From: Acanthochlamys bracteata
Lineage: Eukaryota; Streptophyta; Magnoliopsida; Pandanales; Velloziaceae
Assembly (NCBI GenBank): GCA_019914995.1
Contig: CM034136.1
Location: 1,875,270-1,939,269, forward strand
Direction: 5' to 3'
DNA: 64,000 nucleotides
Part shown: one piece after another, positions 1,618 to 26,339 of the stretch
How positions within the stretch are numbered: position 1 is the stretch's first letter
Layout: every line of letters begins with the position of its first letter
Translations under genes and position numbers: made by a program
Notes under the pieces: model-generated
The model's database searches: none
The model's input: the letters and a program-made list of their open reading frames with translations, nothing else
What the model was told of the DNA's origin: nothing

Positions 1618-1882
1618 GGGCATGTTTACCTACTGTTAAACTCACTTTTTGAATGTGAGTTTGGATTTGAAATTGAGGTTGATAAAAAATGAGTTTTGTG
1701 TTTACCTTTTATTAAAAGTGAGTTTGGAAGTAAAATTTTTAGTTTAAATTTTGACATATGAAAGTTAAGTTTTTGACTGAAAAATTGAGTTTTGTTTTTG
1801 GTGTTTACTTTGTTTCAAAAGTGAGTTAAAAGTGAATTTTTTTGTGGAAAAAATTGAGTTTATATGGTAGGTAAATATGCCC
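1618..1882. mobile_element. Harbinger-like MITE, about 265 bp
   Basis: The left end reads GGGCATGTTTACCTAC and the right end is its reverse complement with one mismatch (GTAGGTAAATATGCCC). The flanks are TTT on the left and TTA on the right, close to the 3-bp TWA target duplication of PIF/Harbinger elements. The interior is AT-rich and non-coding, with repeated GTGAGTTT-like words. It is a non-autonomous element with no open frame of note. Confidence 0.7.
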
Positions 1883-2801
1883 TTAGAGTTGGTCCCAGAT
1901 CTTGCTCATATACTATCCATTACAAGCGAAAAGGCTTCAAAATTATTCACGTCCTTAAAAATCACTACTACATAGTAGATAGTGTTCCTTGCTGGGCCAC
2001 TTCGTCATCCTTAATTCAGTTTACTTCCCACAATTAATTCAGTTTACTCTTTGGAAAATTTACTCTGGCACCAAATGTTCATCATCTGCTTTTCTTATGA
2101 TGGCATTTTTTTTATAAAAATCAACTACTACACAAGTAGTTGCAGCTCAAGAGCAGCCAAGTCGAGGATACTAACAGATGGTACAAGAGTGCAATCAAGT
2201 TGTAGGCTAACTGCTTCCTCAAAAACCTCAAGAGACAAAGAGATATAAACAGCATCTAGATCTCAACAACTGAAAGTTGATAGGAGCAAATCCATGTAGC
2301 TTTCCTCTAGAACTAAAGCAACCATCCATATTTGTAGTATCAAAAGTTAATATCACATGATTCATGTTAAAAGGGCACAGCAAGTGGACTACTCACAGTC
2401 CATACACTGTTTACCCTCATAAATGCAAAAAAGCGAAACAGATACCACCAAATACTTTAAGATCCATTTCCATGTCCCTGTCCTTCAGAACCAATCTATG
2501 TTCACGAAGCCAAAATCTAACTTTACATCTGACATTTAACAAAATAGTGACTAAAAGATTAACACAAAAAAAGCTCATAATGTATGCTGTCAAGTTTAGT
2601 CAACCCAGAACCTTACAAAATAAACTTGTAAAAATAGGAAGAATTGCAAATTACCAAAATCTATAGGAGGGAATCTGAAATGCTGTTGAATTTCAACATT
2701 TAATGACCAAGTACATGCTTGTAAAGTAAAAGAAATCAGATTATTGCCACACATGCATGATATGTTTGAATTAAGCTAGAAAGAAAGCCAGAGTTAGTTA
2801 C

Positions 2802-3835
2802 CCAGCATTGAATATAATTGGTGGAAGGAGATAGATGAAGAAGAGATCCTCACTAAAGACCAAAATGTGGGAGCTCCTCCCCTTTGTTGTAAGCAGAATC
2901 ACAACTCCTGTGCACAAGCCCTGCAGTATATCAACAAACACAATGATGCCTACTCAACTGATTTGCAATTCTCATAAAGATTCAAACTTTCTTAAAGGAA
3001 ATCAAGATAAAAATTTTGGAGGCAAAAAATTCAATAAATAGAAAACCAACTACAGAAGTCAGCAACTAAAAGGGCTCGTAAATCCCCATGCAAGAATTCA
3101 GGCTTCATCAAGATGAGATACAAGAACAAAAGAACTAAACATTAAAGGTGTGTCTATCCCTCGATTCTCATTAAGATTCATATGGCAAGTGAATGTGAGT
3201 AATGAAGGACGGCAAACAAAAGCAGCATCAGCATCGTCATCAATAACAAGAGTAATCACATGAGAACACCTCAACCAAGCCGCCAATTACGCAATAAAAA
3301 CAACAACCTCTGTCCGCAAACTTCTTAATACCCGCAACAATCTCTTAAAGATTCAACAAGACCAAAAAAAGAAAAAGAAGAAGAAAAAGAAACAGAGAGT
3401 AAAATAAATAAGTCCCGGCACAGAGGATACATCCTATGATTCAAGCAGCAGAAAACAAGTAAATCTAATATGGACCACCTCCTCAATCAAAGAAAAGATT
3501 TCAAACTTTTGCAAAAGAGTAACCGGAGAATTACCCAAAATACAACAGCTAACACAGAATGACAAAATCTTTACTTGACCAACTTTTCAATTCCTCAAAA
3601 GGATTCAAACTTTGGTATAAATAGGTGGAGAGAGAGAGAGAGAGAGAGAGATTGAAAGACTAACGATGATGAGAGCTGTGATGGACTCATTCATCCACCG
3701 GTTTTCTTCAAGAAGATGACCGAGAACGATGCACATGCAAAGCAACGCAACGAATAGATTGATGGCGATAACCGACGCGTGGTCGGAAGTGGAAAGCCAT
3801 CCGCCACTGCCGAAGATTGCTTCAGCAACAGCCAT
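2802..3835 (-). CDS. NHX: Vacuolar-type Na+/H+ antiporter (NHX), first two exons only
   Basis: NHX proteins exchange Na+ or K+ for H+ across the vacuolar membrane. Exon 1 (3835 down to 3665, 57 codons) starts with MAVAEAIFG and holds the family's TSDHAS, NLFVALL and GHLLEENRWMNESITAL motifs, including the first membrane segments. It ends at a GT donor in phase 0. Exon 2 (2920 down to 2802) follows an AG acceptor and reads TGVVILLTTK, then SSHILVFSEDLFF and LLPPIIFNAG, the conserved amiloride-binding region, ending in phase 2 at a GTAA donor. The two exons are open and splice in frame. I could not find exon 3 in the remaining 2.8 kb, so the gene either has a long intron and continues off the window or is a truncated fragment. 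An (AG)n tract lies in intron 1. Confidence 0.85.
3631..3652. repeat. (AG)n microsatellite in NHX intron 1
   Basis: About eleven AG units in a row lie just downstream of NHX exon 1 on the coding strand, where they read as (CT)n near the 5' splice site. Confidence 0.9.
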
Positions 3836-5459
3836 GGCGGCGCACCCTCCAACTCTTCTTCCTCTTCCGCTAAAGAATCAATTCTTGATCTTGGTAACAG
3901 AATAAAGACGACAGATTCCTCGGAAAGAATTGAGGAGAAATTCCACGCTTGATTAATTCCTTTATCTATTTTCTTAAATTTCTTGGAAAGAAACTTTTTT
4001 TTTTTTGGAGTTTCTGGAACTGAAGTGGAATGAACGGAACGATGATTGTGGGGGACTTCCGAAGGATCAACTACGAAACACTGTAAAAAGCAAAACCAAA
4101 ACAAAAACCGAAACAAAAATAAAAATATTGAAACGAATGAATGAAATAAAATTGAATGATTTTTAATTTAATAGATGGACCGGACTCCGGAGGTAAAGAG
4201 AGAAGAAGGAAAAAAAATTTTAATTCGAACAGACGAACACGCCTGATTTTTATTTATTTTTAGGAAAGAGAACAAAATTATTTCTTTTTCTGCTGCATAG
4301 GAGAAATTATAAACAAAGATTTCTTCATTTATTTAGCTAAAACGTTAGACAAACATAATGAGACAAAATATAGGTATTTCTTACTTATAAAACACTCTGA
4401 AATTATTCTTCTTTTATAATTAACTACGTCTAACTATTGCGAACAATTTAAAAGATTCTCTTTCTAATCCAATTAATTTAACTTGTTTTTCTATTTTCTT
4501 TTCTAACCCCTAACATAATGAGACTAGTTAATTGTGTGGTATGCTTTAAAAATTGACTATCATCTTTTATATTAACGGAATAATTGTTTTTAGAATTCAA
4601 TTTTTAATCAAAAATTTAGTTTGAAATATTTTATATTTATCTTTTTATTAAAAAATTTATTTTTTGTCACTTCTTTTTAAATTCTATTTTCCACAATAAT
4701 ATTTTAAAATAAAAATTTTCACTTTAATTTTATTTTAATAATAAATTAATAAAACATTAAGCTCATATTTTAATAGTTATTTTTTATGTAATTTATTTTA
4801 ATAAGCTTATTTTTGTAACTTATTTTTTAAAAAATAACAAGCTCTAAGCTAAGACGTGGAAGAAATACCAACCAAGATTTGTCAAACTTCATTTTATATA
4901 TTTTATTAATATCTCACTTTAGTATTTTAACCAAATTAATAAGTTAGATCATAATTCAAAACATGTCCTAAAGAATTTGAAATACTAAAGTATGATATTA
5001 TACACGACATAAAAATGTGTCACAAAATATTTTTTTTTGAAAATTTGTGGTCATTTTTTTAATTAAAGTTCGTTTCTGTAAAGAAATTTCCCTCCAAAGA
5101 CATGTATAAGAAGTTTATGGGTATGAAGTTGTGCATGACCTATGAAGTTGTGCATGACCTCTACGTCGAGTTGAACCTCTACTACTCAAGTTAAATTTTG
5201 ACCAAACTAAATTAAGTTGAATTTACAATAATGAAAATTTTGATTTTATTATTTGAAAAGAATTCAACTTTTTATGTATTTTAAGTTGAGTAAAAATTTC
5301 TTTGATCAAATTTCCATTACATATAATATAATAATAAAATATAGTTACTAATATAGGTTAGATGTATTTGCTCAAACCAAAATATTGATAAAAAATATAT
5401 TTCTCTAAAAACAAGTACTTCTGTTAGCAATTAATAGGTTAAAAAAAACACACACACAC
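3836..5459. other. Presumed NHX upstream region and AT-rich spacer
   Basis: The first 300 bases, read on the minus strand, should hold the NHX 5' leader and core promoter. I cannot fix a TATA box or start site. The rest is AT-rich (4300-5400) with no supported coding sequence. A (CA)n tract at about 5450-5458 touches the left end of the UTP25 inverted duplication. Confidence 0.4.
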
Positions 5460-8240
5460 TGATCAAGGAACATGTCGCTGCTAAGGATAACTTCGCTCCC
5501 ACTTTTTTTTTTCTTGTTGAGCTTTCTATCATTCTTGGTGACAATATTCTCTGTTCTATATATGTGACTTAACTGCAAAATATGGACATTAAAAACCTAT
5601 TAACTATTGATAGCAAAATTATCGTACATCTAATATAGGTAAGAAATGCTAAGATACACACAATATACATTAGGTAAGCATCCATGACTAAAGAATCTTT
5701 CTTGTGACTTTTGAGATAAAAGGGTTTATTGCCTGCCACAATTTGAAAAACCAATTAGTTTTAGTTTTCACTGGCAAAGGCATCCCTCAAATATGGGAGT
5801 TGCCTGTGTTCATACCAAATGCGTAAGAGTAGACCAGCAAAAGTATGGAAATAGCAAAGGAAGTTGTAAAAATAGAATGATTGCTGGGAATTTTGGTAAA
5901 ATCCTATATTCTTAGATCAAGCAAGCAAGTATTCTATCCTAACTGAAACACATTATACAACTAGAGTTAGAGTACATTAATTTCAACAAGATAATTAGCT
6001 AAAAGAAAACTGATTTTATACTTTCTTATCAAAACATACTAGTTATTCTATGGAGATGTTTCCATATAAGTGGTCGATGAATTAATCAAATGTCTCTAAC
6101 TGCGAATTAGTGAGGTGCATCTCTATTGTGGCTAAGAGTAGCATGCGAATAGTTTTGCCTAGTACAACGCATATAATATTTATGTACCAACAGGCAAACA
6201 TAAAGTTATTCTGCACACATCGCAAAATGCTAATGCATGAACAATCTTACAAAGAAATATGAAAGAAAACGTCAAAATTGTGTACACAATCCAATAGCAG
6301 CCTGTGTCCTCATAGAAGATTCATCCCTTCAAACACAAGACATATGTACACATATCATAAACAAGAATGCCGAATGTATATTGAATTTCAAAATGATTCA
6401 ACAGTTCAAATACATCTCATAGATATAAAAAATTATTCATCATCAAGTAGATCATCGAATCTCTCATCAGATGAATATTAAGAATGCTTATGTTCAACGG
6501 AAAAAGCAAGAATAGAGAATAATGCTTAAAGAGAGAAAAGAAAACACTAGATTTAACGAATAAAAATCATCAGATCTTTTACTGTTATAAATAGTTAGCC
6601 AATGGTCACACAACTTTTATTTTAGCCTATGAAAAGGACAAGTACTGGCCTCCTAAAAAGAAAACAACCAACAAGCTCATATGAGCAATAGCAAAAAAGA
6701 AAATAGATATAAAAGTTGATGTGCACAACTTCTATAACATGAGTGACGCTGATGTTCAGATACAATGAGCACATTGTTTCAAACAATGCAAAAGATATAA
6801 GAAAAGCTAATATCGTACAAATTTTAAAGTGCAAAAAAATAATAAAAAAATAATTTTGAACAATGAAAGACTATAAAGGTCATACGGACGAAGAGTCCAA
6901 GCATACCTGCAATTGCAAAGGTTGTTCTCCTGTACCTATCCACTTAGACATTGGTAAATGAGGTGCAGGTATATCCCATCCGAATTCCATTTTCTTTTTC
7001 ATTAACTTATCAACATTTTCACTTTTCCGATTATGCTCAAAGTGACTATAAAAAGAGCTGCATAAAATTTTGAAACAATTACCTAAACTACATATAATCA
7101 ACTTACTACGACAAGATCAAGAGAAGATTATTCACACTATCCTTTTCAAAATGTGATGCTTTCTTCAATGTTTGATGAAACTTATAGTTCTGCAAGTCGA
7201 AGTAAAACAACTACCTTTGGGTTTTCAACTCGAGATCCTTGTTATCACTCTCAGCGAAAGGAGTCTCATCTCCATCAGAGACGCCACCATCATAGTTCAA
7301 TTCCATAGTATCAGAAGTATTAGTAACTTCTTGATCATCTGTTGAAACAGATGCACCGCTACATCCTGACACATCAAAGCAAGATATGTTTATGTCATGT
7401 AAGATAAGGTACAAGAGCTGACATGTAGATGACAGAATTTCTTCGATTTGATTCAGGTGAAGTTAATTAAACAGATGCTTATTTTGTTAATAATGTAGTA
7501 GCTTATCACCTTCTTCCTCATCAAGACTAATACTGTCGGAGCACAAATCTCCAGCTTCTGCTGAATCAATTGGAGCTTGTTCTTCTAATCTTCTTCCGCT
7601 GCTGCTCAGCAATCCAAATTATTGAGAGCATATGAATAAGATCTTATAAATTAATCATTAAGTGAACATATGATCAAAAGGTTTACTTGGCCACTTGAAG
7701 GTCATTGAGCTTGTTACTAGAAGATCTCAATTTAGTTGCCGCTATCACTCGTTCTTCCTGAACATTCATCAAATCAAATGGAGGTTTTATCTACTATGAA
7801 CTGTTTGTAAAATTTGAAAGACTGAGTCATTAGAAACTAAAAACAAAAACACTTATTACCGTTTTCGAGTTCGGCCCTTATAAATAAGAGATGGCAATTT
7901 TGGACCCGATTTAAAACCACCCGATAAAGTCGGATTCGGATCAAATTTTAACTGAATTTGGGTCAATTTTGGATCAATTCGAAAAAGTCGAGTTCGGCTC
8001 TTGTTAGCCAATTCTTCTTCTTTGCTATTTATGTGTTTGCCGATAGTTTTTTCTGTTTAATTGCTAACATAAACAATCAGAAAAAAAAATAAAATGAAAA
8101 TAGTCACTCAATATAAGAACTAGAAAAAGCGAACACAAACAATACGGCGTAGTTGAAGAAGTGGTATAGTGAAAAAAGATGGAACATTTATTCTTGTTCT
8201 CGTTCTTCTTGTTATTCTTACTGCAATCGAATCTAGCCAT
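5460..8240 (-). pseudogene. UTP25: UTP25/NOF1 pseudogene, truncated left copy (exons 1-8)
   Basis: This is the 5' part of a gene for UTP25 (plant NOF1, animal DEF), a U3 snoRNP/SSU-processome protein with a degenerate helicase fold, needed for 18S rRNA processing. Exon equivalents in order on the minus strand are: start codon at 8240 (MARFDCSKNN), about 7760-7689, 7606-7519, 7367-7216 (acidic STDDQEV/DGDETPF), 7057-6907 (KWIGTGEQ), 6645-6525, 5737-5640 (KPFYLK) and a partial exon 8 cut at 5460. Damage specific to this copy: the GLKQKL region has CAA changed to TAA, the following donor GT is TT, 30 bases encoding the SYRDIMHC region are missing, and exon 8 is frameshifted. It keeps sense codons at two sites where the right copy has stops. 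It cannot make a full protein. Confidence 0.88.
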
Positions 8241-8678
8241 TGATGAAGAAAGAAACCTTTGCTTTGATTTGTGTTGTTCTGCTGTCACAAACTGACAGAT
8301 AGAAAGAGGGTTAATGGGGGCGGCAGTGGCAAAGAATCAATCTTTGTATTCTTATATTAAAGTATATTAAGGGTGAGGTTGTTGTGTTCATTTTTTTTGT
8401 GGCTTTAAATTAGCTGCATGAAGTATATTAAAAGAGCAAGTGAAAAACAAGAAACTATTAATAAAGAAAGTTCTGCTTTTATTTTTACTTGCATGATGGG
8501 CGTGCTTATCAATTTCTTAAACTCTGTTTTTAAAATTTAATTTAATATAAAATAAATAAAGTTTTTAAAAAAAAATTTATTATTAATACAAATTTATAAA
8601 AAAACTATTAATTATTTTAATTTTAATATAATTTTTTAAACTCGTTTTAAAAAAATAATTTTATCTATAGTAAACACA
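5460..8678. repeat. Left arm of the UTP25 inverted duplication
   Basis: This stretch is the reverse complement of 13583-17271. The outer edge is at a TGATCAAGGAACATG junction inside UTP25 exon 8, next to a (CA)n tract. The inner edge is at the end of an AT-rich MITE-like element. In the exon 4 stretch I counted about 6 differences in 151 bases between the arms. The arm lacks the 296-bp MITE present in the right arm and has other small indels. Confidence 0.9.
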
Positions 8679-8689
8679 GATAAAAGGAA

Positions 8690-10330
8690 AAGAAGAAGAA
8701 GAAGATCTTGAAGAATTAGGATTAAGCTACTTTAAAGGTTCGGTGAATCAGGGCTTCTCCAACAGAATGTTGAGGATGTCTACAAAATGCATGATTTACT
8801 ATGCCCCCTGGCTCGACATCTCACTCGAGACGAAGTATGGTGTGAACCTGCCAAAAGATGGAAAGAAGTATTGTTTAAATCATTAGATCTTTCGTCACAG
8901 CGAAAACTTTATCGAGTATACATTTTAACTGAAGCGGAGAAGAAACACATTTCTATTTCGAGGAGAGGGAAGGAGGAAGGCATTTACTTGAGAACATTAT
9001 TGACAGGTGACACAGAATTCTCAATTGATCACTTTGGAAGCCTGGGCCATCTCAGAGTCCTCCGAATTCATCTTCCTGCAGAAAGGCCACATAACTCTTT
9101 AGGAAACCTTATATATTTGAGGTATTTGAATCTACAGAAGAGCGGAATAAGTGAGATGCCAGATAGTATAGGATCATTGAGAAATCTAAAATCTTTTGGA
9201 TTTGTTTGGATGCGATTCTTTACAGAGACTTCCGAAAAGCATTGGTTTATTGACTAACCTACTCTATCTCAATCTCGAACAAACGAACTTAGATAGCATT
9301 CCAGTTGGAGTAAGGAATCTTCAGAAACTTCAGACTAATAAATTTGGGAAGAGCATATTTTGAGAGAAAATGATCCTTTTTGGAAAACACAGCTCATCTA
9401 GATTGTCTTACATTAAGAGGTGGGGGGTACGTTGGTGAAGAAGAAGCAACTTCTCAAGAAGAAGTTGAGGAGGTTATGGAAGAGTTGTGTCCTCCGCAGG
9501 GGCTCCAAGAATTATATACATTCTATCTCCGAACTCGCACATATCCTAGATGGATGGATGAGTCACCATCCGCCCTCTAAAACGTGAGGATATTGAGCCT
9601 TCTCTGTTGCCCTCAATGGAAAGAACTCCCTACATTGTGTCATCTACTCGTGACTGGAGTTGTTGAATATCTTTAGAATATTTTCGGTTGTTGAAATCGG
9701 CCCTGAATATTTCCTCCCACTAATGCAAGACTAGGTGCTTAATAATAGTGAAAGTAGAGTTTGTTCCTTCCCTAAATTAGAGACTCTTTCTTTCAAGAAC
9801 ATGGGCAGTTGGAAAGAATGGCGCTGGATGAACGAGGAGGAAGAACAAAGTAGTGGCATCTTACAATTGTTACCACGGCTGAAAGAGTTGAAAATCTCTT
9901 CTTGCAGCGAGCTGAGATGTCTTCCCCACGCTCTCCCTAACCATGCCACAGTCTTGATAGATTTGCGGATCGTATATGCTTTACAAGTTAGAGGAGGTTA
10001 AAAACCTCCGCTTCATCAGAAAATTAACAATCAGTAAGTGTCATGCTCTAAAGAGAATAAGAGATCTACCGTCTCTTGAATCTCTAGATATATTAAGTTG
10101 TATGAACTTAAAGGATGCGGATGGTCTGCCCGAGCTTCAGAAAGTGCACATTAGATGTGCGGATAGTCTTGTTGAATGACTTTTAAATAATACAGTAGTA
10201 GCAGCAACTAGTTTCTTCTCCAAACTCTAGAATCTCCAGATTGAAGTTGAGAACAAGTTAAGCATTATCCATAGGCTTTCTGATTAGGATGCATCGACAG
10301 CATCAGGCACATCCAGCATGTTGATGTCAA
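8690..10330 (+). pseudogene. NLR (CC-NBS-LRR type) resistance gene fragment, LRR region only
   Basis: The fragment opens with a region just before the MHD motif (LLQQNVEDVYKMHDLL), which marks the end of an NB-ARC domain. Leucine-rich repeats follow: LGHLRVLRIHL, LIYLRYLNLQKSGISEMP (8787-9257), LLYLNLEQT (about 9260-9320, another frame), PQGLQELYTFYL (9380-9580), FPKLETLSFKNM and LPRLKELKISSC (9735-10001), then SLESLDILSCMNLKDADGL (9976-10179). NLRs are intracellular immune receptors. The coiled-coil and the nucleotide-binding P-loop part are absent, and the LRR is split over several frames with stops, so this is a 5'-truncated, decayed copy. It lies between the two UTP25 arms, starting right at the inner edge of the left arm. 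Confidence 0.88.
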
Positions 10331-10835
10331 GACAAACGATGAAGCTGCATTCATTTTGTACACTAAATCTCCCTTCTCCTTTAGGGCGCATATATCGGCC
10401 CATGTCTTAGAATTGGAAGAGTAAAGTCAAAAGTTGACCAGAGCAGGTAACCATTGACTCCCCTCCACGAGCATCCACTACTAGTGCTCACCCGATTTAA
10501 GGATTAATTTTACCACGAGTGCGGAGAAGAAGGCTAGTACATCTCTTACTGCTGCGAAAGCTGCGGATTCCATTTGCGTTCCATCAAAGTGCGCAATCCA
10601 AAAAAAAGAAAGTAATAAGAGCACTGAAATTTGCTGAGTGTCGTAGAATTAATAAGAAATTTATGACAATATATATTTTAGTCTTTATTATCTTATAAGA
10701 ATTACTAATTACTTGTTGATTAATTAAAATTTGTTAATTAAAATTACTTGTTGATACCACCTAAGAATAATATGGTTTCACTTACCAAAGTTCACCTCCC
10801 ATTTGCTAGGGCACATCAGGCAAAGAATAAAACCA

Positions 10836-10927
10836 AGCCCAACCCACTAGAAAACCGGGTGTAACTTGTAATAAGAGAATTCAACTAAACCTATCCTGCA
10901 AATACGAAAACTTTCTGAAAACCCTAA
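10836..10927 (+). promoter_or_regulatory. Site II and telo-box promoter elements of the fibrillarin gene
   Basis: AGCCCA at 10836-10841 is the reverse complement of TGGGCT, a site II (TCP-bound) element. A telo-box AAACCCTAA lies at about 10919-10927, some 34 bases before the start codon. This pairing is known from promoters of plant ribosomal-protein and nucleolar genes. Its place just upstream of a fibrillarin first exon fits, so the promoter came with the fragment. Confidence 0.7.
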
Positions 10928-10960
10928 ACCCTCTCTCTCAAAAATCTATCAGCCGCAATC

Positions 10961-12349
10961 ATGAGGCCCCCAAGAGGTAATCAAAGTATTTCAATATTTC
11001 AACTCTAATTCTCATTGTTTCTGTTATTTAGATAGATTCAGCACTGTAAGACTCGTGTTTCAAATGTTTTTCCCTTCTGAAGTCGGTGATTGATTCGGTT
11101 TTTTCTGCTGTTTGCTCTAGATCCCTTGAAAATTTTGAAAATTTCATTCTGAAGTGGTAATCTGTTAGTGTTAGAAGATCGTTTGAAGTTTTTTATTTGA
11201 GTGCATGTGGAACGTGTTTGATTTCGGGGTTACATTTTGGAACTGCTATAACTGTGTTAGGGCTTGTTAGTCATTATACACAGAAATTTTAGGTTTCGAT
11301 TGGTTATTAAAACTATAGTTGTTTTGTAAGCTTAAAGATTGTTGAAAGTTTCTTTGTTCTTTGATTTCATGTGGAATGCTCGACTTTTGGTGAGCTTTTT
11401 TTCCTTTTAAAGTTTTTTTAAACTTTTATTAAATGACTAGCCGTGTTAAGACTTGTTGGTTGTTATTAGAAACTTTGTGTTTGTTTTTATGTTTCATGTT
11501 TTTGAATCATACCAGGTGGTGGGGATTCTTTTTTTTCTGCATTTCATGTGGAATGTCTTCTTTATATGTTTTTAACTTGTTTTAGTTCCTGTGCTAGGGC
11601 TTGCTAGTCATTGTTTAGTGGAATTTTGTTATTTCATTTTTTCGAAACATGATCAGATGGTAGGAATTTTAGAAGTGGTTAGTAATTGTTTTGGTGATTT
11701 TGGTTTGATTCATGATCAGGTAATGAGAAAAATAGATGTTGTTGTAAGTTTAGATAACTGCATTGATTAGTTTTCTTCCCTTAGGTGAAAATTTTTTATT
11801 TGAAGTGAAGCTCTGATGATGTTATTATCTATCAGAAATTTGTTTTCTGTTATTTTAACATTTCTGAAAGAAATCAGGACGTGGAGGTGGCTTCAGAGGC
11901 CGTAGTGATGGTGGTGGTAGAGGTAGGGGCCGTGGTGGTGGTGGAAGAGGTGAGGGTGGAAGCTTTGGTGGTAGAGGTCGTGGTGGCGGCTGTGGGGCGG
12001 GGAGAGGCTATGGAGGTCGTGGTGGTGGAATGAAGGGAGGAAGCAAGGTTGTTGTTGAGCCACATAGACGTGAAGGTGTTTTCATTGCAAAGGGCAAAGA
12101 AGATGCGCTTTGCACTAAGAACATGGTCCCTAGAGAATCAGTCTATGGTGAGAAGAGGATTGCTGTGCCGGTAATTGCAAAAGCTGCGACTTCTGTGTCA
12201 AGCTTGTGTTTAGTTTGGTGAAAAAGGTATTAATTGGTCTTTGTGGATTGCAGAATGAAGATGGGAGCAAGATGGAGTCCAGAGTGTGGAACCCCTTCAG
12301 ATCAAAGCTTGCTGCTACTATTCTTGGTGGCGTTGACAGTATCTGGATT
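10961..12349 (+). pseudogene. FIB: Fibrillarin gene fragment (exons 1-3, methyltransferase domain missing)
   Basis: Fibrillarin is the box C/D snoRNP 2'-O-methyltransferase of the nucleolus. Exon 1 (10961-10976) gives MRPPR. Exon 2 (11878-12170) gives a glycine/arginine-rich (GAR) segment, then [27 protein letters not shown] and YGEKRIAVP. Exon 3 (12254-12349) gives [19 protein letters not shown] and [10 protein letters not shown], ending at a GTGAGT donor. All three exons join in frame with canonical sites. The next expected segment (the SAM-binding KVLYLGAASGT region) is not in the following 1.2 kb, which is AT-rich and transposon-like. The piece could encode about 135 residues without the catalytic core. 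The intron 1 position just after the MRPP start matches the plant gene layout. Confidence 0.9.
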
Positions 12350-13582
12350 GTGAGTGCTCTTTATTAGTGGATAACTGCTAGCTTAAATTGTTGTTATGTC
12401 TAATAGTGTAAATTGTTGTTTCTTTACAATAAAAAAATGAATGACTTGGTCTTATTCTCTCTGATCGATTTGTTTAGAAATACTTACATAATGAATTTTT
12501 TTGAAAAGAATTTATTTTAAAATTTTATGAAATAAAGTTTGAGTGTTTTATTTGAGATGAAAATTATATATAAATTTTTTATCAAGTATAATTTATTTAT
12601 ATTTGAAATTAAAAAAAACAAATTATTATTAAAAAATTATTAGACAATAAAAAATTATAATACTGATGTATTAGGCCATTTTTCAAGTACACTTAGTTTT
12701 ACGAAACTAAATTTCGTAAAAGTGAAGTTCAAATAGAAGTGGAGCTCGATAAAAGCAGAATTCAAAGTGACATTTGAAATAAAAAAAGTGAAATTTAAAG
12801 TTAAATTTTAATAGAAGCATAATTCGGTGTGAAAGTACAAGTAAAGTTCGAAATAATAATTGAATATGTGAAGTGATCGAATTCAAAATCTGAAGAAAAA
12901 AATAAAGTTCGGTATATTTGAAACAAACAGTTAGACTATTCATTAATTTATCATTCTTCATTTGAAAATTGATTTGATTTGATCTGAAATAAAGTTCGGT
13001 ATATTTTAAAATTAGTGAATAGTTTCGGTACGAATTACAAAACTAGCTCCGTTTTATGTTATATATTGATTGATTTGATTTGTTTACATCCATTTCATTT
13101 TTTTGTTAACTTTGGCACTGAGTATCTAAACTAAGAAAATTTTTTTAAAAAATTTTAAAACTAACTAAGGTTTTATTACTGAATATATACATGTATGTAT
13201 AAATATACATGTCTATGTATATATAAAGTTATTAATATATAATTTATTGATTTGTTTAAATATAATTTAGGATCATGGCAGTGCTTTGGAAAATGCAATT
13301 CCAAAACACTTACATAGAGCAATTTTTTAGGAGGAACTTTGAAAATATTTAAAATAACTTAAAAAAATAAATTTATTTAAAGAATTTCTAAACAATAAAT
13401 TTTTTATTCAAAAATGAAAAAAATATACACATATAATTGATCGGTATTTTTCATATTGTTGGATAAATTATCTTGAGCGATAAGAGAGTAGACGTGATAC
13501 TATGGTTTGCTTGAATAAACCTACAAGATATTCAAATTTCAAATCAATATCCCCTATGGTCCTACCCAAAAAAAGACACATT
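12350..13582. other. AT-rich spacer with MITE remains after the fibrillarin fragment
   Basis: No gene is supported. At 12672 a sequence starting GGCCATTTTTCAAGTAC, preceded by TTA, resembles the end of the MITE at 16334 (both carry AAAGTGAAGTTC-type internal words). I could not find its partner end, so it looks truncated. The rest is AT-rich. Confidence 0.45.
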
Positions 13583-13800
13583 GGGTGTGTTTACGTTGGA
13601 TAATATCACTTTTTAAAAACAAATTTTAAAAATAAATTAAAATTAAAATATTTAATATTTTTTTAATAAATTTTGTATTAATGATAAATTTTTTTAAAAG
13701 ATTTTAAAAAAATTTGATAAAGAATTTTTTTAAAACTTTATTTATTTTATATTAAATTGAATTTTAAAAAAAGAGTTTAAGAAATTGATAAGTACGCCCA
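13583..13800. mobile_element. AT-rich MITE-like element at the inner duplication edge
   Basis: The ends read GGGTGTGTTTACG and, inverted, GGGCGTACTTATC, an imperfect terminal repeat. The interior is nearly all A and T. The counterpart in the left arm is about 8500-8678. A related sequence (GATGTGTTTACTTTG) starts at about 49127. No clean target duplication can be read. Confidence 0.5.
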
Positions 13801-14147
13801 TCATGCAAGTAAAAATAAAAGCATAACTTTTTTGGTATAATAGTTTTTTGTTTTTTACTTGCTCTTTTAATATACTTCATGCAGCTAATTTAAAGCCAAA
13901 ACAAAAAAAAATTCAACATGACAATATAAATAAAATTGCAAAGAAAGAAACAATCTTTTTATTCAATCACGTCAGTAGTTTATTCTATTGAGGTCAGGTC
14001 ATTGCTCAACCTCACTCTTAATATACTTTAATATAAGAATACAAAGATTGAGTCTTCGCCGTCGCTACCCCCGTTAGCCCTCTTTCTATCTGTTAGCTTA
14101 TAACAGCATAGTAGCGCAAATCAAAGCAAAGGTTTCTTTCTTCATCA

Positions 14148-17100
14148 ATGGCTAGATTCGATTGCGGAAAGAATAATAAGAAGAACGAGAACAAGAATAA
14201 AGGTTCCATCTTTTTTCACGATACCACTTCTTCAACTACGCCGTATTGTTTATGTTCGCTCTTTCTAGTTCTGATACTGAGTGACTGCTTTTATTTTCTT
14301 TTTTTTTTTGCTTATTGTTTCTGTTTGCAATTAAACAAAAAAACTATCGGTGAACACAGAAATAGCAAAGAAGAAGAATTGGCTAATAATAGCCGAACTC
14401 GACTTTTTCGGATCGACCCAAAATTGACCAAAATCCGGTTAAAGCTTGACCCGAACTCGACTTTTTCGGTCGATTTTGGATCAAGTCGAAAATTGCCACC
14501 TCTTATTTATAAGGGCCGAAATCGAAAACAGTAATTAAGTGTCGGAGATTTTATTTGTTTTTAGTTTCTAATGACTCCGTCTTTCAAATTCTACAAACAG
14601 TTCATTGTAGATGAAACCTGCAATTTGATTTGATGAATGTTCAGGAAGAATGAGTGTTAGCGGCAACTAAATTGAGATCTTGTAGTAACAAGCTAAATGA
14701 CCTTCAAGTGGCTAGGTAAACTTTTTGATCATATGTTCTCTTAATGATTAATTTATGAGATCTTATTCATATGCTCTCAATAATTTGGATTGCTGAGCAG
14801 CAACGGAGGAAGGTTAAAAGAACAAGCTCCAATTGATTCAGCAGAAGCTGGAGATTTGTGCTCCAACAGCATCAGTCTTGATGAGGAGGAAGGTGATAAG
14901 CTACTACATTATTAACAAAACAAGCATCTGCTTAATTAACTTCACCTGAATCAAATCGAAGAAATTCTGTCATCCACATGTCAGCTCTTGTACCTTATCT
15001 TACATGGTATAAGCATATCTTGCTTTGATGTGTCAGGATGTAGCAGTGCATCTGTTTCAACAGATGATCAAGAAGTTACTGATACTTCTGATACTATGGA
15101 ATTGAACTATGATGGTGGCGCCTCTGATGGAGATGAGACTCCTTTCGCTAAGAGTGATAACAAGGATCTCGAGTTGGAAACCTAAAGGTAGTTGTTTTAC
15201 TTCGACTTGCAGAACTATAAGTTTCATCAAACATTGAAGAAAGCATCACATTTTGAAAAGGATACTATGAATAATCTTCTCTTGATCTTGCCGTAGTAAG
15301 TTGATTATATGTAGTTTAGGTAATTGTTTCAAAATTTTATGCAGCTCTTTTTATAGTCACTTCGGGCATAATCGGACAAGTGAAGATGTTGATAAGTTAA
15401 TGAAGAAGAATATGGAATTCGGATGGGATATACCTGCACCTCATTTACCAATATCTAAGTGGGTAGGTACAGGAGAACAACCTTTGCAATTGCAGGTACG
15501 CTTGGACTCTTCGTCCGTATGACCTTTAAAATCTTTCACTGTTCAAACTTAATTTTTCTTTTATTATTTTTTTGCACTTTAAAATCTGTATGATGTTAGC
15601 TTTCCTTATATCTTTTGCATTGTTTTAAACAATGTGCTCATGGTATCTGAACATCAGCGTCACTCATGTTATAGAAGTTGTGCACATCAACTTTTCTATC
15701 TGTTTTTTTTTTTTTTTTTTTTTTCATGAGCTTCTTGGTTGTTCTATTTTTAGGAGGCCAGTACTTGTCCTTTTCATGGGCTAAAGCAAAAGCTGTGTGA
15801 CCATTGGCTAAGTATCTATAACAATAAAGGATCTGATAATTTTTATTCGTCAAATCTGAGGGCTTTCTTTTCTCTCTGTAAGCATTATTCTCTATTCTTG
15901 CTTTTTCCATTGGCATAAGCATTCTTAATATTCATCTGATGAGAGATTCGATGATGTACTTGATGATGGATGATTTTTTATATCTATGAGATGTATTTTA
16001 ACTGTTGAATCATTTTGAAATTCAATATACATTCGGCTTTCTTGCGTATGATATGTGTACATATATGTCTTGTGTTTGAAGGGATGAATTTTGTATGAGG
16101 ACACAGACTGCTATTGGATTGTGTACACATTTTTGACATTTTCTTTCATATTTCTTTGTAAGATTCACGCATTAGCATTTGCGATGTGTGTAGAATAACT
16201 GTGTTTGCCTGTTGGTATGTAAATGTTGTATGCTACACTAGGCAAAAATATTCGTATGCTACTCTTAGCCACAATAGAGATGCACCTCACTAATTCGTAG
16301 TCAGAGACATTTCATTAATTCATCGACCACTTAGGGCGTGTTTCAAACGCCCGTAACTCCACTTTCTCCGGTCAAATTTTGAGTTCCGAATAGTTCATAT
16401 GTTTTAATTACATAAGCAAATCAGAACTCCACTTCCACATGCAGAACTTCAGTTTCAACTTTCTTATTTACACACTTTCCAATACAACTATATCTTTTAA
16501 TTTTTAACACACTTCCAAAATCTATTGAAACACAGATACTGAACTTCACTTCCACTTTATTTTTCAAGAAATTCTACTTCGTACTTTTCACTTTCACGAA
16601 ACTCAGTTACGGGTATTTGAAACACGCCCTTATATGGAAACATCTCCATACAATAACTAGTATCTTTTGATAAGAAAGTATGAAATCAGTTTCTTTTTAG
16701 CTAATTATCTTGTTGAAATTAATGTACTCTAACTCTAGTTTGTATAATGTGTTTCAGTTAGGATAAGTTACTTGCTTGCTTAACCTAAGAATATAGGGTT
16801 TTACCAAAATTTCCCAGCAATCATTCTATTTTTACAACTCCCTTTGCTATTTCCATACTTTTGTTGGTCTACTCTTACGCATTTGGTATGAACACATGCA
16901 ACTCCCATATTTGAGGGATGCCTTTGCCAGTGAAAATTGAAACTAATTGGCTTTTCAAATTGTGGCAGGCAATAGTTATCGAGACATAATGCACTGCGAC
17001 AAGAAACCCTTTTATCTCAAAGGCCACAGGGAAGATTCTTCAGTCATGGATGCTTACCTAATGCATATTGTGTGTATCTTAGCATTTCTTACTTATATTA

Positions 17101-20100
17101 GATGTACGATAATTTCGCTATCAATAGTTAATAGGTTTTTAATGTCCATATTTTGCAGTTAAGTCACATCCATAGAACACGGGATATTGTCACCAAGAAT
17201 GATAGGAAGCTCAACAAGAATCAAGAAAGTGGGAGGGAAGTTATCTTTAGCAGCGACATGTTCCTTGATCATGGCTTTACTCGTCCGAAGGTAATGGCGG
17301 TGCTGTTATTGGCTTATTGTGTATGGGATGGTTATGGTATTCATTCTTGACAACTCTAGTTACCTAATTCCAATATATGGATATTTTCCCCGCCGACTCT
17401 TTAGTATAATTTATGCTTGTGCTTTCAATTGTAGATTGGTTGGCATTCTCAATCTTCAACTAAAGTTTAGCTAATCTGGATTGGTTGTGTGATAATAGAT
17501 AATAGTGTTTCTCTGATTATGTTAGATATATTTCATTCAATATATTCGAAATATAACACTTCGAGATGATCTGTATTTTCTTTCTTTTATGGTTTACAAA
17601 GTAACCTCAGATTTGACTGACATAGGTGTTGTTGTTATTGCCACTTGCCAGTATTGCATTTCGTGCAGTGATGCGGCTAATTGAACTTTGCCCGCCATCA
17701 AGCAAGGTTTGCAGTTAACTTATAATCTTTTACATGCTTGGCTTTGGTATTTGCTAATATTGTAGGTCTTGTAGCTACATAGGGACTTCAAACTGCTGTG
17801 AGAATTACATAGAAATATGTCTGAAGCAATGTGCATGGATCTACTAGTACCTTAGAGTAAGATGTGGGCATAATTGCTAAATCAGGGTTGTGTTGGGTTT
17901 CGAACTAGGCAAAAATGTTATTAGATATTATAATTATTATTTTGCAGCATGCACTCCTCATCGTGTTAAATGTTAATACTTCATGACTGTATACTTAGCA
18001 ACACTATTGGTACTGCTTCATACTGTATACTTACTTGAGTGTTGGTAGAGGTTGGATGGAAGACACTTTACCGCACTTATAATGAACATAGTAAATGAAA
18101 AATGTGGGAGAATATGATTCGCAGCTATTGCCAAGCAACTATACATGGCCTTTGAATGTTTCATGTACTGTGTTATTTATTATTAACACTGGTTCTGTTA
18201 GGAAGACCCCGTGAATTTTAATCACTACTAATTGAGCTCTTTGTTTTAATGTGTGAAGGCTAATGTTGAGCACATGGATCGCTTTACTCTAGAGTTTGGA
18301 AGTGAAGATGCTGAAGAAGAAAATATTATGGAAGATGGGAATCCAAAATCCCCGAAGACTGTCAAGCCTGCTGATTTTCAAGTCCTTTTCGGTGGAAATA
18401 ACAACGACCACTTTGTGATAGGCATCAAGTTAACAAAGTACCTTCACTCATAAATTTTCTTGAACCATTTGTTTTGAGGTAGTCATTATGCTACATTGGT
18501 TAGAATGTTTACCCATTAGTTACTCTTAAAAAGACTTCTTTAGGTGTTAGTCTGGGTTATGGACATGAAGACCTTTATATTTTCACCGTAAAATAAAATT
18601 CTATACACCATAGTTGTGACTCTATCAGATGAGTTTTTAAGTAATTGCCAATTTTTAAACCTAATTCAATCTGAGAAAGCTAGTTGAGATGGGCTGCAGA
18701 CATTAAGGAAAGAAGGCCATGCGCAAAACCACCAATCCCATCTGTTATCCAATTGAGACAGATTATGGGAAGCATAGAAACTGGCGGAATACATGTGGAA
18801 CATAGTGCCGATCACAAAATTTTTTAATTTTTTGAAATTGAAAGGCTTGCTTACTAGTAAGGTTATGGGTGCTCTGAATTTATCGTGTAATGCTTATTTG
18901 GACAACTTCATGCATGCTAAAGGGATTGATGATATTTGTTCTTTGAATTTTTACTAGACTAACCAATTTATGTTGCTTTATTTTTTGGTTTAATGGATTT
19001 CTTGTGAAATTCTGATATACTTCTCCATGTGTTTCTGTAGGAGAAGCATAAGATTGTACAATGACTTTTATTCGTCAGATGTGATTGTTGCATCTCCTCT
19101 TGGATTAACAACGGTGAGTTTTACCCTGCACTTTTGGATTGTCCGAGCTTTCAGATTATGAATTTTTATAACTGCTACTTTCATGACTGTACATAATGAA
19201 GGATTTGTTATTAAAACAACTGATTGTGTTTTTTCCTGATATACTTTTGAATGTGGGTTATTAAATTTCATGATCTTAGACCAACCACCTTTTTTATTTG
19301 TTGCGTAGGATTTCTGCTTTGAGTCAATAACTCAATCATGAAGGGGGGTAATTTTTGGAGAAATCTATCATACACAAGAAGGATTAGTTATCTGTGCGTT
19401 CACAGTCCCTGTTTCTCAATCATTAGGGAGAGTAGAGATTATTGCCAGTTATCAAATGTTACTTTACCAGCCAAAAATGGTTGTAGTGTGCGGTTGTGTT
19501 GAATAAGTTTTAGTTAAGAACTTGCATACAGGGAATGAAGAAGTATATCCACCTCTCTGTTGTGTTAATTAATTGTTCATTAAACTTGTGAAACGTAATA
19601 TTTCCCAAAAGTCACTGTCATTTTTAATGTCGCTTTTGCCAGTGTGGCATTAGTAGAATTATGTTTATCTTCTTCCCTCATTAGTTGCACCTTTTATTGC
19701 ATTTGCTCCTGATTGTTTGATTTTTTATGAATGGAGTATCATAAAGCAGTTGTGTTCCCAAAACACTAATAGGAAACTAGAATTGTTCTCAGTTTCTGAT
19801 TAGATGTTTCCTGCAGTTCTACAAAGTTTTCTTCATGTTGCTCTTGATGCTTTTTTCAGAAAATAGGAGATGCTCAGTTCGAGAAGGACAAGGATGTAGA
19901 TTATCTATCATCGATAGAGGTATTTTTGAACACTTCATGATTACAGGGAGTGCCCTATGAAGCATGAGAAAAGCTATGCCTTCATGTTTAATTGTCTTAA
20001 TTTTTTTCCTTGCTATGGCGAAAGGTCTTGATCATCGACCATGCAGATATCATCGTTATGCAGGTGACGTAGAGACTATTCCTATGCTATTGTTAAATTA

Positions 20101-22891
20101 ATTATGGAAAGTCGTCAGATGTTATAGCTGTTCTCCATCTGCAGAATTGGTCTCATGTGAAGACAGTTGTTGAACAACTGAATCAGACCCCCTCAAAGCA
20201 GCATGGAACAGATATCATGCGAATTAGGAAGTGGCAAGTTCTAGCACTAGTATTCTGCTATATACTTTTCAATAGGTTCCTTATTTCAATTCCTCTGTTT
20301 CAGGCATTGTTGCTTTTTTTAATCTCATATATGTTTGCACGATCAGCTTCAACTTGTAATCACCTCCCTAAAAATCAGTTTTTGCACACTTTATTTCACA
20401 TTGTACTAATGTAAACTACAAGCTTCTACCGACATTGACCTGGTTTTGTTGAATGATTAGGTACTTAGATGGGCATGCAAAGTTCTATCGCCAGATGATA
20501 CTCCTAGGTGCCTTTTGTACTCCAGGTATCGGAATAATTAACATGTAGATATAATATACCAAGTAATAAGGTTGCTCAAAAAACAGTGTTAGATTTATGT
20601 GTGTAATGGGCTCTTTATTGTTAAAGCGCATTCCACAACTGGATGTTGGTTTGGGTGAATAAATTTTGGTCAGACAATTCTGTGGATGGAAACTTATAGC
20701 ATACTTGTGCCTCCAAGTTTGCATGGAAATGCTTACACTGCTTGTGCCATTTCTGTATTCATCTTTCTTCTCAGACATTCTTCAGCTAATATCTGTTTCT
20801 TGTTTTTTCTTTTTTTTAAAATTTTTTTTGTGCTTGTGCAAAATGGCAGAATGTTATTTTGTACGAGTCTTAAGACTAAAATGTATGTCTAAATTGCTTT
20901 CTGTCATGTTCTTACTTATTATAGAATGGGAACTTTAAGATTTTCGGTCAATTCCTATAATCAGTTTTGTGACTGTTGTAATGATATGTCATACCAGAAG
21001 TAAATGCACTCTTCAATCAGTTCTGCGCTAACTACAACGGGAAGGTATGCATTGAAGTTGAAATCCTGAAGACCCTAAAGATCAAGTAGCTAATGGTATT
21101 ACTTTTCCAGGTTAAGCTTGTTCGTGAATACAAAGGTGTACTTCCTAAAGTGTTACCTGAGTTACGACAGGTAACTTACTGTGGTGATTGTATCTTCTAA
21201 AGTATAATTGTGTAAGGCACCTGATGCAAACAATTTAGAAATCCTTTTCTGAATAATTTACTTCTTACTTTAATCTACTTTTGACCATCAAAATTGCCTT
21301 GATAAAGTACCTTTAGCACCTTTCATAAATAGAGATCAACAATATGCTAAGTTGCTAACCGTATAAAAATCTTTGTAGTTTGTAAATTTTGTTGTATATA
21401 ATCCAATGAAATTCTGCGCTAGGTGTATGAGCGCTTTGATTCACCTTCCATTGTGGGTGCTGATGGTGCACGTCTTGATTATTTCAAAGAAAAGGTATGT
21501 GATATGATACATGATCATTTTTGTCAATAACTATATGATCAGTAGAAATGGCATATTAGAGACATCCATGTATAGACCCAACTGCTTTTAGCATTGTTTT
21601 CCCAAGTTTACTAGTATCTCTGATTCTGTTTCACTTTTGAATGGAATGATAACTTTGAACGAGGTAGAACAACCAAGGAAATAATGGTAGAGAGGACGTT
21701 TTAAGAACAAAGTAAGTTTGGAAGTAATCTTTATATAGATCATTTAACTCTAATCATGATGAGTTTAAGTTCTTAAGCTTTTTTCTTGTTGGGTGTGCGA
21801 CACTTTTGCTTATTTATTCTGACATAGAGCACCTCTGGTATTAATTTGTGCAGGTTTTCCCTAAGATAAAAGACTCTACCGAGGTAAATTTTGCTCGAGT
21901 CAATGGGTTATTGTATAGCTCAACTACATTGGTCTGATCTTTCTCCCATACAGGGTGGAATCATGATATATCAGTTCCTACTTTGAGTACGTGAGAATAA
22001 GGAATTTCTTAAAATTTGAGAAAGCTTCATTTTGCTCTTTGCAAGAGTAAGTACCTTCTGTTTCATATTTAGAGTAATATATGACAAGATTTGCTAGAGG
22101 TGCCAAGTATTGCAAGTTAAAAAAGAGATGAGTTTATTTTCTCCTCTCTATCTCTACAAATGATCCGTGTTTATTTTCCCCTCTCTATCTCTACAAATGA
22201 TCCGTGTCCAGACTGATGCTTTTTAAGTAGTAAAAGTTACACGTTTTGTCATTAATTTTTAGAAATTTCCAGGTATGCAAGCAAAGTGATATATCACGTG
22301 CGAGGGTTTGGTTCTTTCAGGGTACACAAAAGATCATGCTTTACACTGAGAGGGCCCATTTTTATCATCGATATAAGGTCCTTGGTTCTTGTTATTTCAA
22401 CAATTATGCACTTGAAATTAATGTTTTGCGATCGAAACTGAACAATACATGATGCTGCATGCAGATTCGTGGCTTACGGAATCTGATTATTTACTCCTTG
22501 CCAGATAGAAAGGAGTTATATCCGGAGGTTTCTTTGCTCCCTCTGTGGAAACAACTAACAAAAATTTTGAATTTAGCGTGGTTACCTAAGCCGGTATATC
22601 TTTGCTTTTGCTATTTTGTTTATTACAGATTGTCAATATGCTCAAAGGTTCAAAAGATATGGCTTGCAGTGTGCTATTTTCACGATTTGATATGCTCAAG
22701 GTAAGTTTACAGCAATTTCTTAAACTGTTGCTGTGCGCCTGGCCTTCTTTATTTCTTTTCACTGAAAATTGGGATAACATTTCTGCTGGTATTTGACCGA
22801 AATTTAAACGTTTCAGTTGCAGAGGATTGCTGGCACCGCTGCTGCAAAGAGGATGGTGTCATCAGACAAGAGCATCTTTGTCTTCTGTTGA
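14148..22891 (+). pseudogene. UTP25: UTP25/NOF1 gene, near full-length 24-exon copy, likely pseudogene
   Basis: UTP25 acts in the SSU processome in the nucleolus. I place 24 exons: 14148-14202, 14645-14715, 14801-14892, 15037-15187, 15345-15495, 15754-15877, 16969-17069, 17159-17290, 17626-17706, 18259-18437, 19041-19113, 19860-19919, 20025-20063, 20145-20233, 20461-20525, 20998-21044, 21111-21170, 21423-21494, 21854-21883, 21954-22046, 22273-22377, 22465-22527, 22629-22700 and 22817-22891. Family marks include GFTRPKVLLLLPLASIA, LFGGNNNDHF, VASPLGL, LSSIEVLIIDHADI, YLDGHAKFYRQ, YTERAHFYHRYK, RGLRNLIIYSLP and the terminal FVFC. Breaks: TGA at 14651-14653 and TAA at 15183-15185 (the left copy has CGA and CAA), a net 2-base loss in exon 20 that leads to TGA at 21984, and a 1-base loss in exon 21. 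The exon 1/2 phase does not match, so the N-terminus is uncertain. Exons 5-19 are open. Confidence 0.88.
16334..16629. mobile_element. Tourist/Harbinger-like MITE with TTA target duplication
   Basis: This is a 296-bp element in UTP25 intron 6. The terminal inverted repeat begins GGGCGTGTTTCAAA and extends over some 25 bases with few mismatches. It is flanked by TTA at 16331-16333 and 16630-16632. The left arm of the duplication has the unoccupied site with a single TTA at about 6076-6078, which confirms both the borders and the target duplication. It is non-coding. Confidence 0.93.
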
Positions 22892-23259: not shown

Positions 23260-23456
23260 AAGCAAGCAATTATAAACTTCTACATTCACCGCACATTTGT
23301 TCAACCCACCCAACATGATGTTTCTCAGAAGCGTACTCTTTAATGCCTGCAGATGAACTCTAGTGCGATCATGTTGCGTTTCTATTGCTGCTAATCAGAG
23401 CATGTCTCGAGAATTATCTGAACCACATAATTAGCGAATTGATCTTTCATCATTAT
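23260..23456 (-). pseudogene. Pumilio (APUM) RNA-binding protein, 3' fragment
   Basis: On the minus strand an AG acceptor precedes an exon starting at 23456 that reads IMMKDQFANYVVQ then ILETCSD. This is the last PUF repeat of plant Pumilio proteins, which bind 3'UTRs of mRNAs. Two stops follow at once. The continuation VHLQALK, then EKHH and WVEQMCGE in a second frame, matches the family's C-terminal segment after a frameshift. No upstream PUF repeats were seen to the right, so this is a short decayed fragment. It lies tail to tail with UTP25. Confidence 0.8.
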
Positions 23457-23963
23457 CTGAAGAAAAAAAAGGTCAGGAATCAGAACAATTAGAATAATTA
23501 AAACAAAAGTTTCTAAGCTACAGTATTGAAAAAACAAGGACTCTTCTATAAAATGAGATCCCTCGCAATCAAAAGAAACAACAATTTAAATATCCATCTT
23601 TACGAGTAAATTATCATTTCCTTCTGTTGTCGAAGTATTTCTCAAATAAAAAATTCACAGCTCTGCACTATTGCCATGCACCAAACATTTCTCGATGATA
23701 TTTGATGCAATTTGTCCAGCTAATTTGCTGCTGATTGTTTGACTTCTTTCATGAGGTCATCCCCTCACCAAAGTATGTTGCATGTTTCATAAAGAGAATG
23801 CCAAATTTTATAACAAAATCTTTCTTCTAACAGTTTGTTGTATGTTAGTTTGACACTCTCAGACTTGGAATGTAAAAAATGCATGATGGATTACTTAAAA
23901 CTTTACGAAGCATACCTTCATTGTTGTGCATATGATAATGTAAGATTATGCACTTTATCCAAC

Positions 23964-24378
23964 GTTGTCAAAATTGAGATCTTAAATAAGATCGTTTCGC
24001 TTAAGTATATTGTAAAATCAGGATCTTAAAGTAATACCGTAAGATTTTACATACCGATAAATTTTATGAAATTTTTTTTCAATACTATTAAAAATCTTTT
24101 ATAAAAGTTTTTCTAATATTTTTTCAAAAAAAATTTAGTACATTTAGAAAAATTAAAAATATTTTTAAATTTTATAAAAAATTACTCTATATTTTATAGA
24201 AAATTTTTCAAAATTATAATTTTCCAGAAAACCTTTAACATTTTACAGAAAACTCTCTAAAGTTTTATTAAAAAACCCGTTCAAATATAGTTAATTACAA
24301 AAAATTTATCAAAAATCGTATCAGATCGTATAAAGATCGGGATCTTACCGATTTTAAAATTTAAATCGGGATTTAGGT
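23964..24378. repeat. Dispersed AT-rich repeat, copy 1
   Basis: It starts with a GTTGTCAAA word and carries GATCTTAAA, CCGTAAGATTT and ACCGATAAATTTTATG, all matched in order at 62120-62600. The two ends are weakly inverted (AAATTGAGATCTTAA against AAATCCCGATTTAAA), which suggests a non-autonomous TIR element. It directly abuts the left end of the MULE-centred inverted repeat. Confidence 0.65.
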
Positions 24379-24414
24379 GGGACATCGCAACAAACCAATA
24401 TCTTTGATGCCACT

Positions 24415-25469: not shown

Positions 25470-25506
<37 letters not shown>

Positions 25507-26300: not shown

Positions 26301-26339
26301 TTTATTTTTATTTAAATTTTTTATGATTTGTTTTAATTT

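What the first reader, a model, noticed from the sequence alone, without database searches (positions are those of the whole stretch)
5460..17271. Head-to-head inverted duplication of the 5' half of UTP25
Seen directly: exons 1-8 of UTP25 occur twice, diverging from a 4.9 kb spacer that holds an NLR fragment and a fibrillarin fragment. By my count exon 4 differs at about 6 of 151 bases. Inference: a transcript crossing both arms would fold into a dsRNA hairpin of over 3 kb, a known source of plant siRNAs that could act on an intact UTP25 elsewhere.
Basis: partly seen in the sequence, partly recalled or inferred. Interest (0 to 1): 0.75.

Follow-up and report, generated by a model that had tools for sequence, protein, structure and literature searches.

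The report
Broken inverted copy beside UTP25 pseudogene
A plant ribosome-assembly gene, copied with neighbouring disease-resistance gene remnants to a new chromosome site, has a truncated mirror-image copy beside it; both copies look broken, an intact copy lives elsewhere, and nothing seen here shows that the pair makes silencing RNA.

Summary
The inverted duplication is real: left arm 5460-8678 (-) and right arm 13586-17271 (+) match at 80-91% around a 4,907-base spacer holding an NLR piece and a fibrillarin piece. Two corrections. The right arm is not an isolated half: it opens a full-length UTP25 copy running to 22.9 kb, itself broken by a stop codon and two small deletions; the left arm has different lesions. 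An intact UTP25 lies on contig C8. NLR-then-UTP25 order recurs on C8, C11 and C12, so the left arm is the derived copy; it abuts a truncated NLR. Intron divergences among left arm, right arm and C8 are nearly equal (5.7-6.1%), so the inversion arose at or soon after duplication of the block. The siRNA idea is untested: the copies read away from each other, and spacing and divergence resemble the silent Arabidopsis Col VIM4-VIM2 arrangement. The left arm has extra C-to-T changes, chiefly at CHH sites (46 of 701 against 16 right, 14 C8), compatible with past methylation, but some tests of this are not significant. Most likely an ordinary by-product of segmental duplication.

The parts
5460..8678 (-). 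Left arm: truncated inverted copy of the UTP25 5' half (upstream region to part of exon 8)
   Evidence: alignment; lesions: stop codon and 1-base deletion in exon 6, changed exon 6 splice donor, 30-base deletion in exon 7, cut within exon 8
8680..10743 (+). 3' portion (LRR) of an R13L1/DRL21-type NLR; homology to NLRs on C8 and C12 begins at the arm junction, and the preceding NLR part was not found at 1-5460
10789..12409 (+). 5' fibrillarin gene fragment: about 1 kb of sequence before, and some after, the Gly/Arg-rich and fibrillarin ORF 11868-12221; 95% identical to C9:426242-427927
12671..12934 (.). dispersed repeat in the spacer (many matches on other contigs at 75-80% identity)
13586..17271 (+). 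Right arm: 5' half of a full-length UTP25 copy
16334..16629 (.). 296-base dispersed element with terminal inverted repeats GGGCGTGTTTCAAA and TTA on both sides (Tourist-like MITE by recalled features); absent from left arm and C8 copy
14801..22891 (+). 22 modelled exons (E3-E24) of the C11 UTP25 copy; full length but broken
15183..15185 (+). in-frame stop in exon 4 of the right copy, not shared by left arm, C8 copy or C8 partial copy
21954..22046 (+). exon 20 of the right copy with a 2-base deletion; exon 21 (22273-22377) has a 1-base deletion

Best explanation
This is the scar of a segmental duplication. An NLR-UTP25 block related to those now on C8 and C12 was copied into C11 next to an NHX-like gene. 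At the block's left edge, at or soon after that event, 3.7 kb of its own UTP25 5' half was copied in inverted orientation and joined to a truncated NLR, probably by replication template switching or break repair with end joining. A fibrillarin fragment (time not resolved) and, later than the inversion, a MITE were added. Both C11 copies decayed by independent lesions, while the C8 copy stayed intact. The pair is most likely two pseudogenes with no regulatory role. Shown: arms, full-length right copy, lesions, intact C8 gene, shared NLR-UTP25 order, nearly equal divergences. Inferred: the repair mechanism, the direction of copying into C11, event order beyond the tree, lack of function.
For: NLR then UTP25 in the same orientation at three loci, C8, C11 and C12, makes the right position ancestral. 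NLR homology starts at 8680, directly at the left arm's inner end (8678), and the preceding NLR part present on C8 and C12 has no match at 1-5460. Intron divergence is nearly equal: left-right 5.80%, left-C8 6.12%, right-C8 5.71%. With C12 as outgroup, on the 15886-17175 part only, left and right group by 9 sites against 3 and 0 (ultrafast bootstrap 96). Lesions in the two arms are not shared, and the C8 copy reads open through all 22 modelled exons. 1392-3981 is collinear in pieces with C8:7495426-7497630, a different place from the C8 NLR-UTP25 locus, so the block lies beside unrelated sequence.
Against: Right-copy exons beyond the arm show dN/dS 0.22 against C8 (11 nonsynonymous, 13 synonymous changes), so this copy was probably constrained for much of its history; its lesions may be recent or could be assembly errors. 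The left-right grouping rests on few sites. Mechanism is inferred from two junctions, read by eye, with little or no microhomology.
Confidence: 0.78

Rival explanations
1. A silencing inverted repeat like PAI1-PAI4 or VIM4-VIM2: a transcript crossing the spacer folds into dsRNA, and 21-24 nt siRNAs methylate the arms and lower the C8 UTP25 in trans.
For: An intact target exists. 718 distinct 21-mers are shared between the arms, longest exact run 81 bases, and 87 are also in the C8 coding sequence. Left-specific substitutions are C>T or G>A in 65 of 106, against 31 of 62 (right) and 27 of 83 (C8); left against C8 p = 0.0001, right against C8 p = 0.04. At 701 CHH sites the counts are 46, 16 and 14 (left against right p = 0.0002, and in noncoding 26 against 11, p = 0.02).
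Against: Arms read apart. Spacer is 4.9 kb and identity about 90%. Right arm and C8 lack the CHH excess that siRNAs acting on both should leave. CG plus CHG changes are not raised in the left arm (19 against 15, p = 0.6), although these contexts are usually the most methylated (recalled). The C>T to other ratio does not differ significantly between left and right (p = 0.20), nor does the CHH to non-CHH ratio of C>T (p = 0.07). The spacer's fibrillarin fragment (10 C>T of 21) does not differ significantly from the left arm (p = 0.33), so the footprint may not be special to the arm.
Confidence: 0.1
2. The structure is an assembly artefact: a misjoined or duplicated paralogous contig.
For: The genome has other similar UTP25 copies, and elsewhere in the window a gap is flanked by an inverted repeat (44219-46407), which could be a misjoin.
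Against: No gap in 1-44864. Arms differ at about 10% of sites and by a MITE absent from the left arm, so they are not one sequence assembled twice; they carry distinct lesions.
Confidence: 0.05
3. Promoter donation: the left arm brings UTP25's 5' region upstream of the NHX-like gene on the same (-) strand, giving a chimeric transcript or alternative promoter.
For: The left arm reads leftwards towards the NHX-like ORF at 3605-3877 on the same strand; the NHX name is recalled from sequence similarity.
Against: No transcript data. The left copy has a changed splice donor and a stop codon. Pfam found no family in the 90-residue ORF, and the PF00999 list has nothing nearer than C11:1848112.
Confidence: 0.04
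4. Transposon capture (Pack-MULE or Helitron) assembled the gene fragments.
For: Mosaic of gene pieces (NLR, fibrillarin, UTP25); a FAR1-type MULE transposase ORF lies downstream.
Against: In the whole-window self-comparison (matches over 80 bases, E up to 1e-10) no inverted repeat other than the UTP25 arms brackets the spacer. The NLR-UTP25 order is shared with C8 and C12, so most of the mosaic predates any capture.
Confidence: 0.03

Closest known systems
Arabidopsis VIM4-VIM2 head-to-head inverted repeat (PMC13213937; passages seen)
   Same: Head-to-head inverted copies of a gene with homologues elsewhere
   Different: In Cvi the non-palindromic middle is 50 bp and the arms are 99.86% alike, with small RNAs shown; here 4.9 kb and about 90%, closer to the Col form, for which those small RNAs were not reported; no small-RNA data here
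Arabidopsis PAI1-PAI4 inverted repeat (described in PMC13213937; passages seen)
   Same: Inverted duplication of a gene with unlinked copies
   Different: PAI is tail-to-tail with strong CG and non-CG methylation; here head-to-head with both copies broken and methylation unknown
Partial inverted duplicates of ARR17 (poplar) and PISTILLATA (willow) in sex-linked regions (PMC13064059; passages seen)
   Same: Partial gene duplicates in inverted pairs, with an intact gene elsewhere
   Different: Those are proposed to act in sex determination; nothing here links UTP25 to a trait or a sex-linked region
NOF1/UTP25 (At1g17690; PMC2942902 and PMC5085252, passages seen)
   Same: Same gene by domain; PMC2942902 reports one NOF1 gene in Arabidopsis and recessive embryo-lethal mutants
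   Different: Here at least two full-length copies plus fragments

Membership tests
Small-RNA-producing inverted repeat (PAI/VIM type) | two long inverted arms of one gene | tested here: met
Small-RNA-producing inverted repeat (PAI/VIM type) | near-identical arms with a short middle | tested here: not met
   80-91% identity and a 4,907-base spacer; 718 distinct shared 21-mers
Small-RNA-producing inverted repeat (PAI/VIM type) | transcript crossing the middle | not testable with these tools
   no RNA data
Small-RNA-producing inverted repeat (PAI/VIM type) | 21-24 nt small RNAs from the arms | not testable with these tools
   no small-RNA data
Small-RNA-producing inverted repeat (PAI/VIM type) | non-CG methylation of both arms and of homologues | tested here: inconclusive
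   indirect mutation footprint only: raised CHH C>T in the left arm, not in the right arm or C8; two of the ratio tests left against right not significant
Small-RNA-producing inverted repeat (PAI/VIM type) | intact homologous gene elsewhere | tested here: met
   C8 copy reads open through 22 modelled exons
UTP25/NOF1 | Pfam Utp25_C and UTP25_NTPase-like domains | tested here: met
   right copy, exon by exon
Unprocessed pseudogene pair | introns kept and reading frame broken in each copy | tested here: met
   not checked against reads
Pack-MULE/Helitron capture | transposon ends and target-site duplication around the mosaic | tested here: inconclusive
   no bracketing inverted repeat over 80 bases in the self-comparison; short repeats looked at only in 10600-13950, 25 of 121 inverted pairs shown; Helitron ends not searched

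The most novel reading that the evidence does not exclude
The truncated left arm was for a long time a target, and perhaps a source, of RNA-directed methylation, leaving a CHH-biased C-to-T footprint readable in the assembly, and it tunes the essential UTP25 gene on C8 in trans.
Probability: 0.07. Interest if true: 0.6.

Novelty: new member of a known kind. Interest (0 to 1): 0.27.

Why it matters
If the ordinary reading holds, it shows how an essential gene caught beside an NLR cluster is duplicated, inverted and broken while one copy survives. If the silencing reading held, an essential ribosome-assembly gene would be under control of its own broken mirror copy. Comparing mutation spectra of left arm, right arm and unlinked copy is a cheap sequence-only way to look for past methylation at inverted repeats, though here it is only suggestive.

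Tried and rejected
Right arm as a mere half gene: rejected. C11 right copy as the intact UTP25: rejected because of the exon 4 stop and the exon 20 and 21 deletions. dN/dS on the arm exons as a test of left-arm decay: uninformative, since these exons evolve fast in all three copies (left-right 0.74, left-C8 0.71, right-C8 1.55). Strand-biased deamination during repair: not seen (28 C>T against 37 G>A). Locus-wide methylation: the fibrillarin fragment gave too few sites (21 changes) to tell. The C12 branch (35 C>T, 25 T>C, 30 transversions) cannot be rooted and was not used. A first C>T count on the narrower 14801-17275 stretch (CHH 39, 14 and 13 for left, right, C8) gave the same direction. 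Pfam on the NHX-like ORF gave nothing and PF00999 listed nothing near it, so NHX rests on recall and on a piecewise match of 71-81% to C8:7.495 Mb. A PDB search with the 14115-14534 translation gave three weak unrelated hits. The bacterial promoter scan of 13500-13600 means little in a plant. That the genome is a plant's is inferred from its genes; the species was not identified. Paper searches were keyword listings; no other search for this locus in print was made.
Full report
What is there. The inverted duplication is real: 5460-8678 on the minus strand matches 13586-17271 on the plus strand in three collinear blocks of 80-91% identity, with a spacer of 4,907 bases. The spacer holds LRR exons of an R13L1/DRL21-type NLR and the 5' part of a fibrillarin gene. 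There is no gap in arms or spacer.

The right arm is part of a whole gene. Pfam UTP25 domains continue on the plus strand to 22386, and 22 exons (E3-E24) can be modelled from 14801 to 22891; the exons before E3 were not resolved. An in-frame stop ends exon 4, exon 20 has a 2-base deletion and exon 21 a 1-base deletion; the exon 14 donor is GC. The left copy has other lesions: a stop codon and a 1-base deletion in exon 6, a changed exon 6 donor, a 30-base deletion in exon 7, and truncation in exon 8. None of these is shared by the two arms.

Copies elsewhere in the assembly. C8 (140.9-149.4 kb) holds a copy that reads open through the 22 modelled exons to its stop. A 1.06-kb direct partial copy begins about 7 kb before it, 97% identical. 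C12 holds UTP25 pieces inside an NLR cluster, and C11 near 7.874 Mb has a match to the last exons only. In six-frame searches by two Pfam domains and one protein no further place appeared; these searches score only the best candidates.

Origin. On C8, C11 and C12 an NLR precedes UTP25 in the same orientation. NLR homology on C11 begins at 8680, directly after the left arm's inner end, and the preceding NLR part seen on C8 and C12 has no match at 1-5460. Left of the arm, 1392-3981 is collinear in pieces (71-81%) with C8:7.495 Mb, away from the C8 NLR-UTP25 locus. So the block sits beside unrelated sequence, and the inverted copy lies at that edge. Intron divergences are almost equal: left-right 83 of 1,432 (5.80%), left-C8 88 of 1,438 (6.12%), right-C8 82 of 1,436 (5.71%). 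With C12 as outgroup over the part it shares, 9 sites join left and right, 3 join right and C8, none join left and C8; ultrafast bootstrap 96. The inversion therefore probably happened at or soon after the duplication. The junctions show little or no microhomology (read by eye). Template switching or end-joined break repair fits; this step is inferred. The MITE at 16334-16629 came later, since the left arm and C8 have the empty site.

Is it a silencing hairpin? In favour: an intact target, and 718 distinct 21-mers shared by the arms, 87 of them also in C8 coding sequence. The left lineage has 65 C>T or G>A among 106 substitutions, the right 31 among 62, C8 27 among 83. Left against right for C>T counts gives p = 0.0007; the C>T to other ratio gives p = 0.20 for left against right, 0.0001 for left against C8 and 0.04 for right against C8. 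At 701 CHH sites the counts are 46, 16 and 14; CG plus CHG are 19 and 15 for left and right, 13 for C8. In noncoding sequence CHH is 26 against 11 (p = 0.02) and all C>T 37 against 22 (p = 0.07); the CHH to non-CHH ratio left against right gives p = 0.07. Part of the exon excess (28 against 9 C>T) may be loss of constraint. The fibrillarin fragment, with 10 C>T of 21 changes, is not distinguishable from the left arm (p = 0.33). None of these p-values is corrected for the number of tests. Against: both copies read away from the spacer, and the right arm and C8 lack the CHH excess. The published head-to-head VIM4-VIM2 repeat makes small RNAs in Cvi, with about 96 bp between start codons and near-identical arms; in Col, which lacks them, the figures are about 2.8 kb and 92% (PMC13213937, passages). 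Here start codons, if the first ATG is right (8240 and 14148), are 5.9 kb apart. I put siRNA silencing at about 0.1.

Why the gene matters. NOF1, the Arabidopsis UTP25 homologue, is single copy and its mutants are recessive embryo lethal (PMC2942902, passages; PMC5085252 names UTP25 the NOF1 homologue, passages). Right-copy exons beyond the arm show dN/dS 0.22 against C8 (399 codons), so the C11 copy was probably functional for much of its life and broke recently, unless its small lesions are assembly errors.

Verdict. Confirmed observation, ordinary explanation: two broken UTP25 copies created by duplication of an NLR-linked block, with the intact gene on C8. The left-arm CHH footprint is the one unexplained point worth a methylation check.

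Noticed in passing
window 24381-27435 and 30599-33712: A second inverted duplication, 94% identical, around a 3.2-kb loop with a FAR1/MULE transposase ORF (29115-30185, -). Its right arm seems to run on into a Copia-like element (314-base repeats at 33128-33441 and 37653-37965, 89% identical), so the left arm again looks like the truncated copy.
   Followed up: partly
window 44219-46407: A 96% inverted repeat whose left arm ends exactly at a 100-N gap (44865-44964): possibly a scaffolding misjoin.
   Followed up: no
G000:C8:133630-134686: A partial direct copy of the UTP25 5' end, 97% identical to the intact C8 gene downstream: this gene's 5' part has been duplicated there too.
   Followed up: partly
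window 5460-8678: Left-arm substitutions show excess C>T in CHH context (46 of 701 sites against 16 and 14 in right arm and C8), without strand bias.
   Followed up: partly
window 20145-20233: Exon 14 of the right copy has a GC splice donor where C8 has GT.
   Followed up: no
window 23391-23585: A PUF-repeat ORF on the - strand (below Pfam's cut-off) where homology with C8 ends (23451), followed by a high-copy repeat at about 23956-24382.
   Followed up: partly
window 1392-3981: Collinear in pieces with C8:7495426-7497630 at 71-81% including noncoding parts, as expected of an older duplicated block.
   Followed up: no
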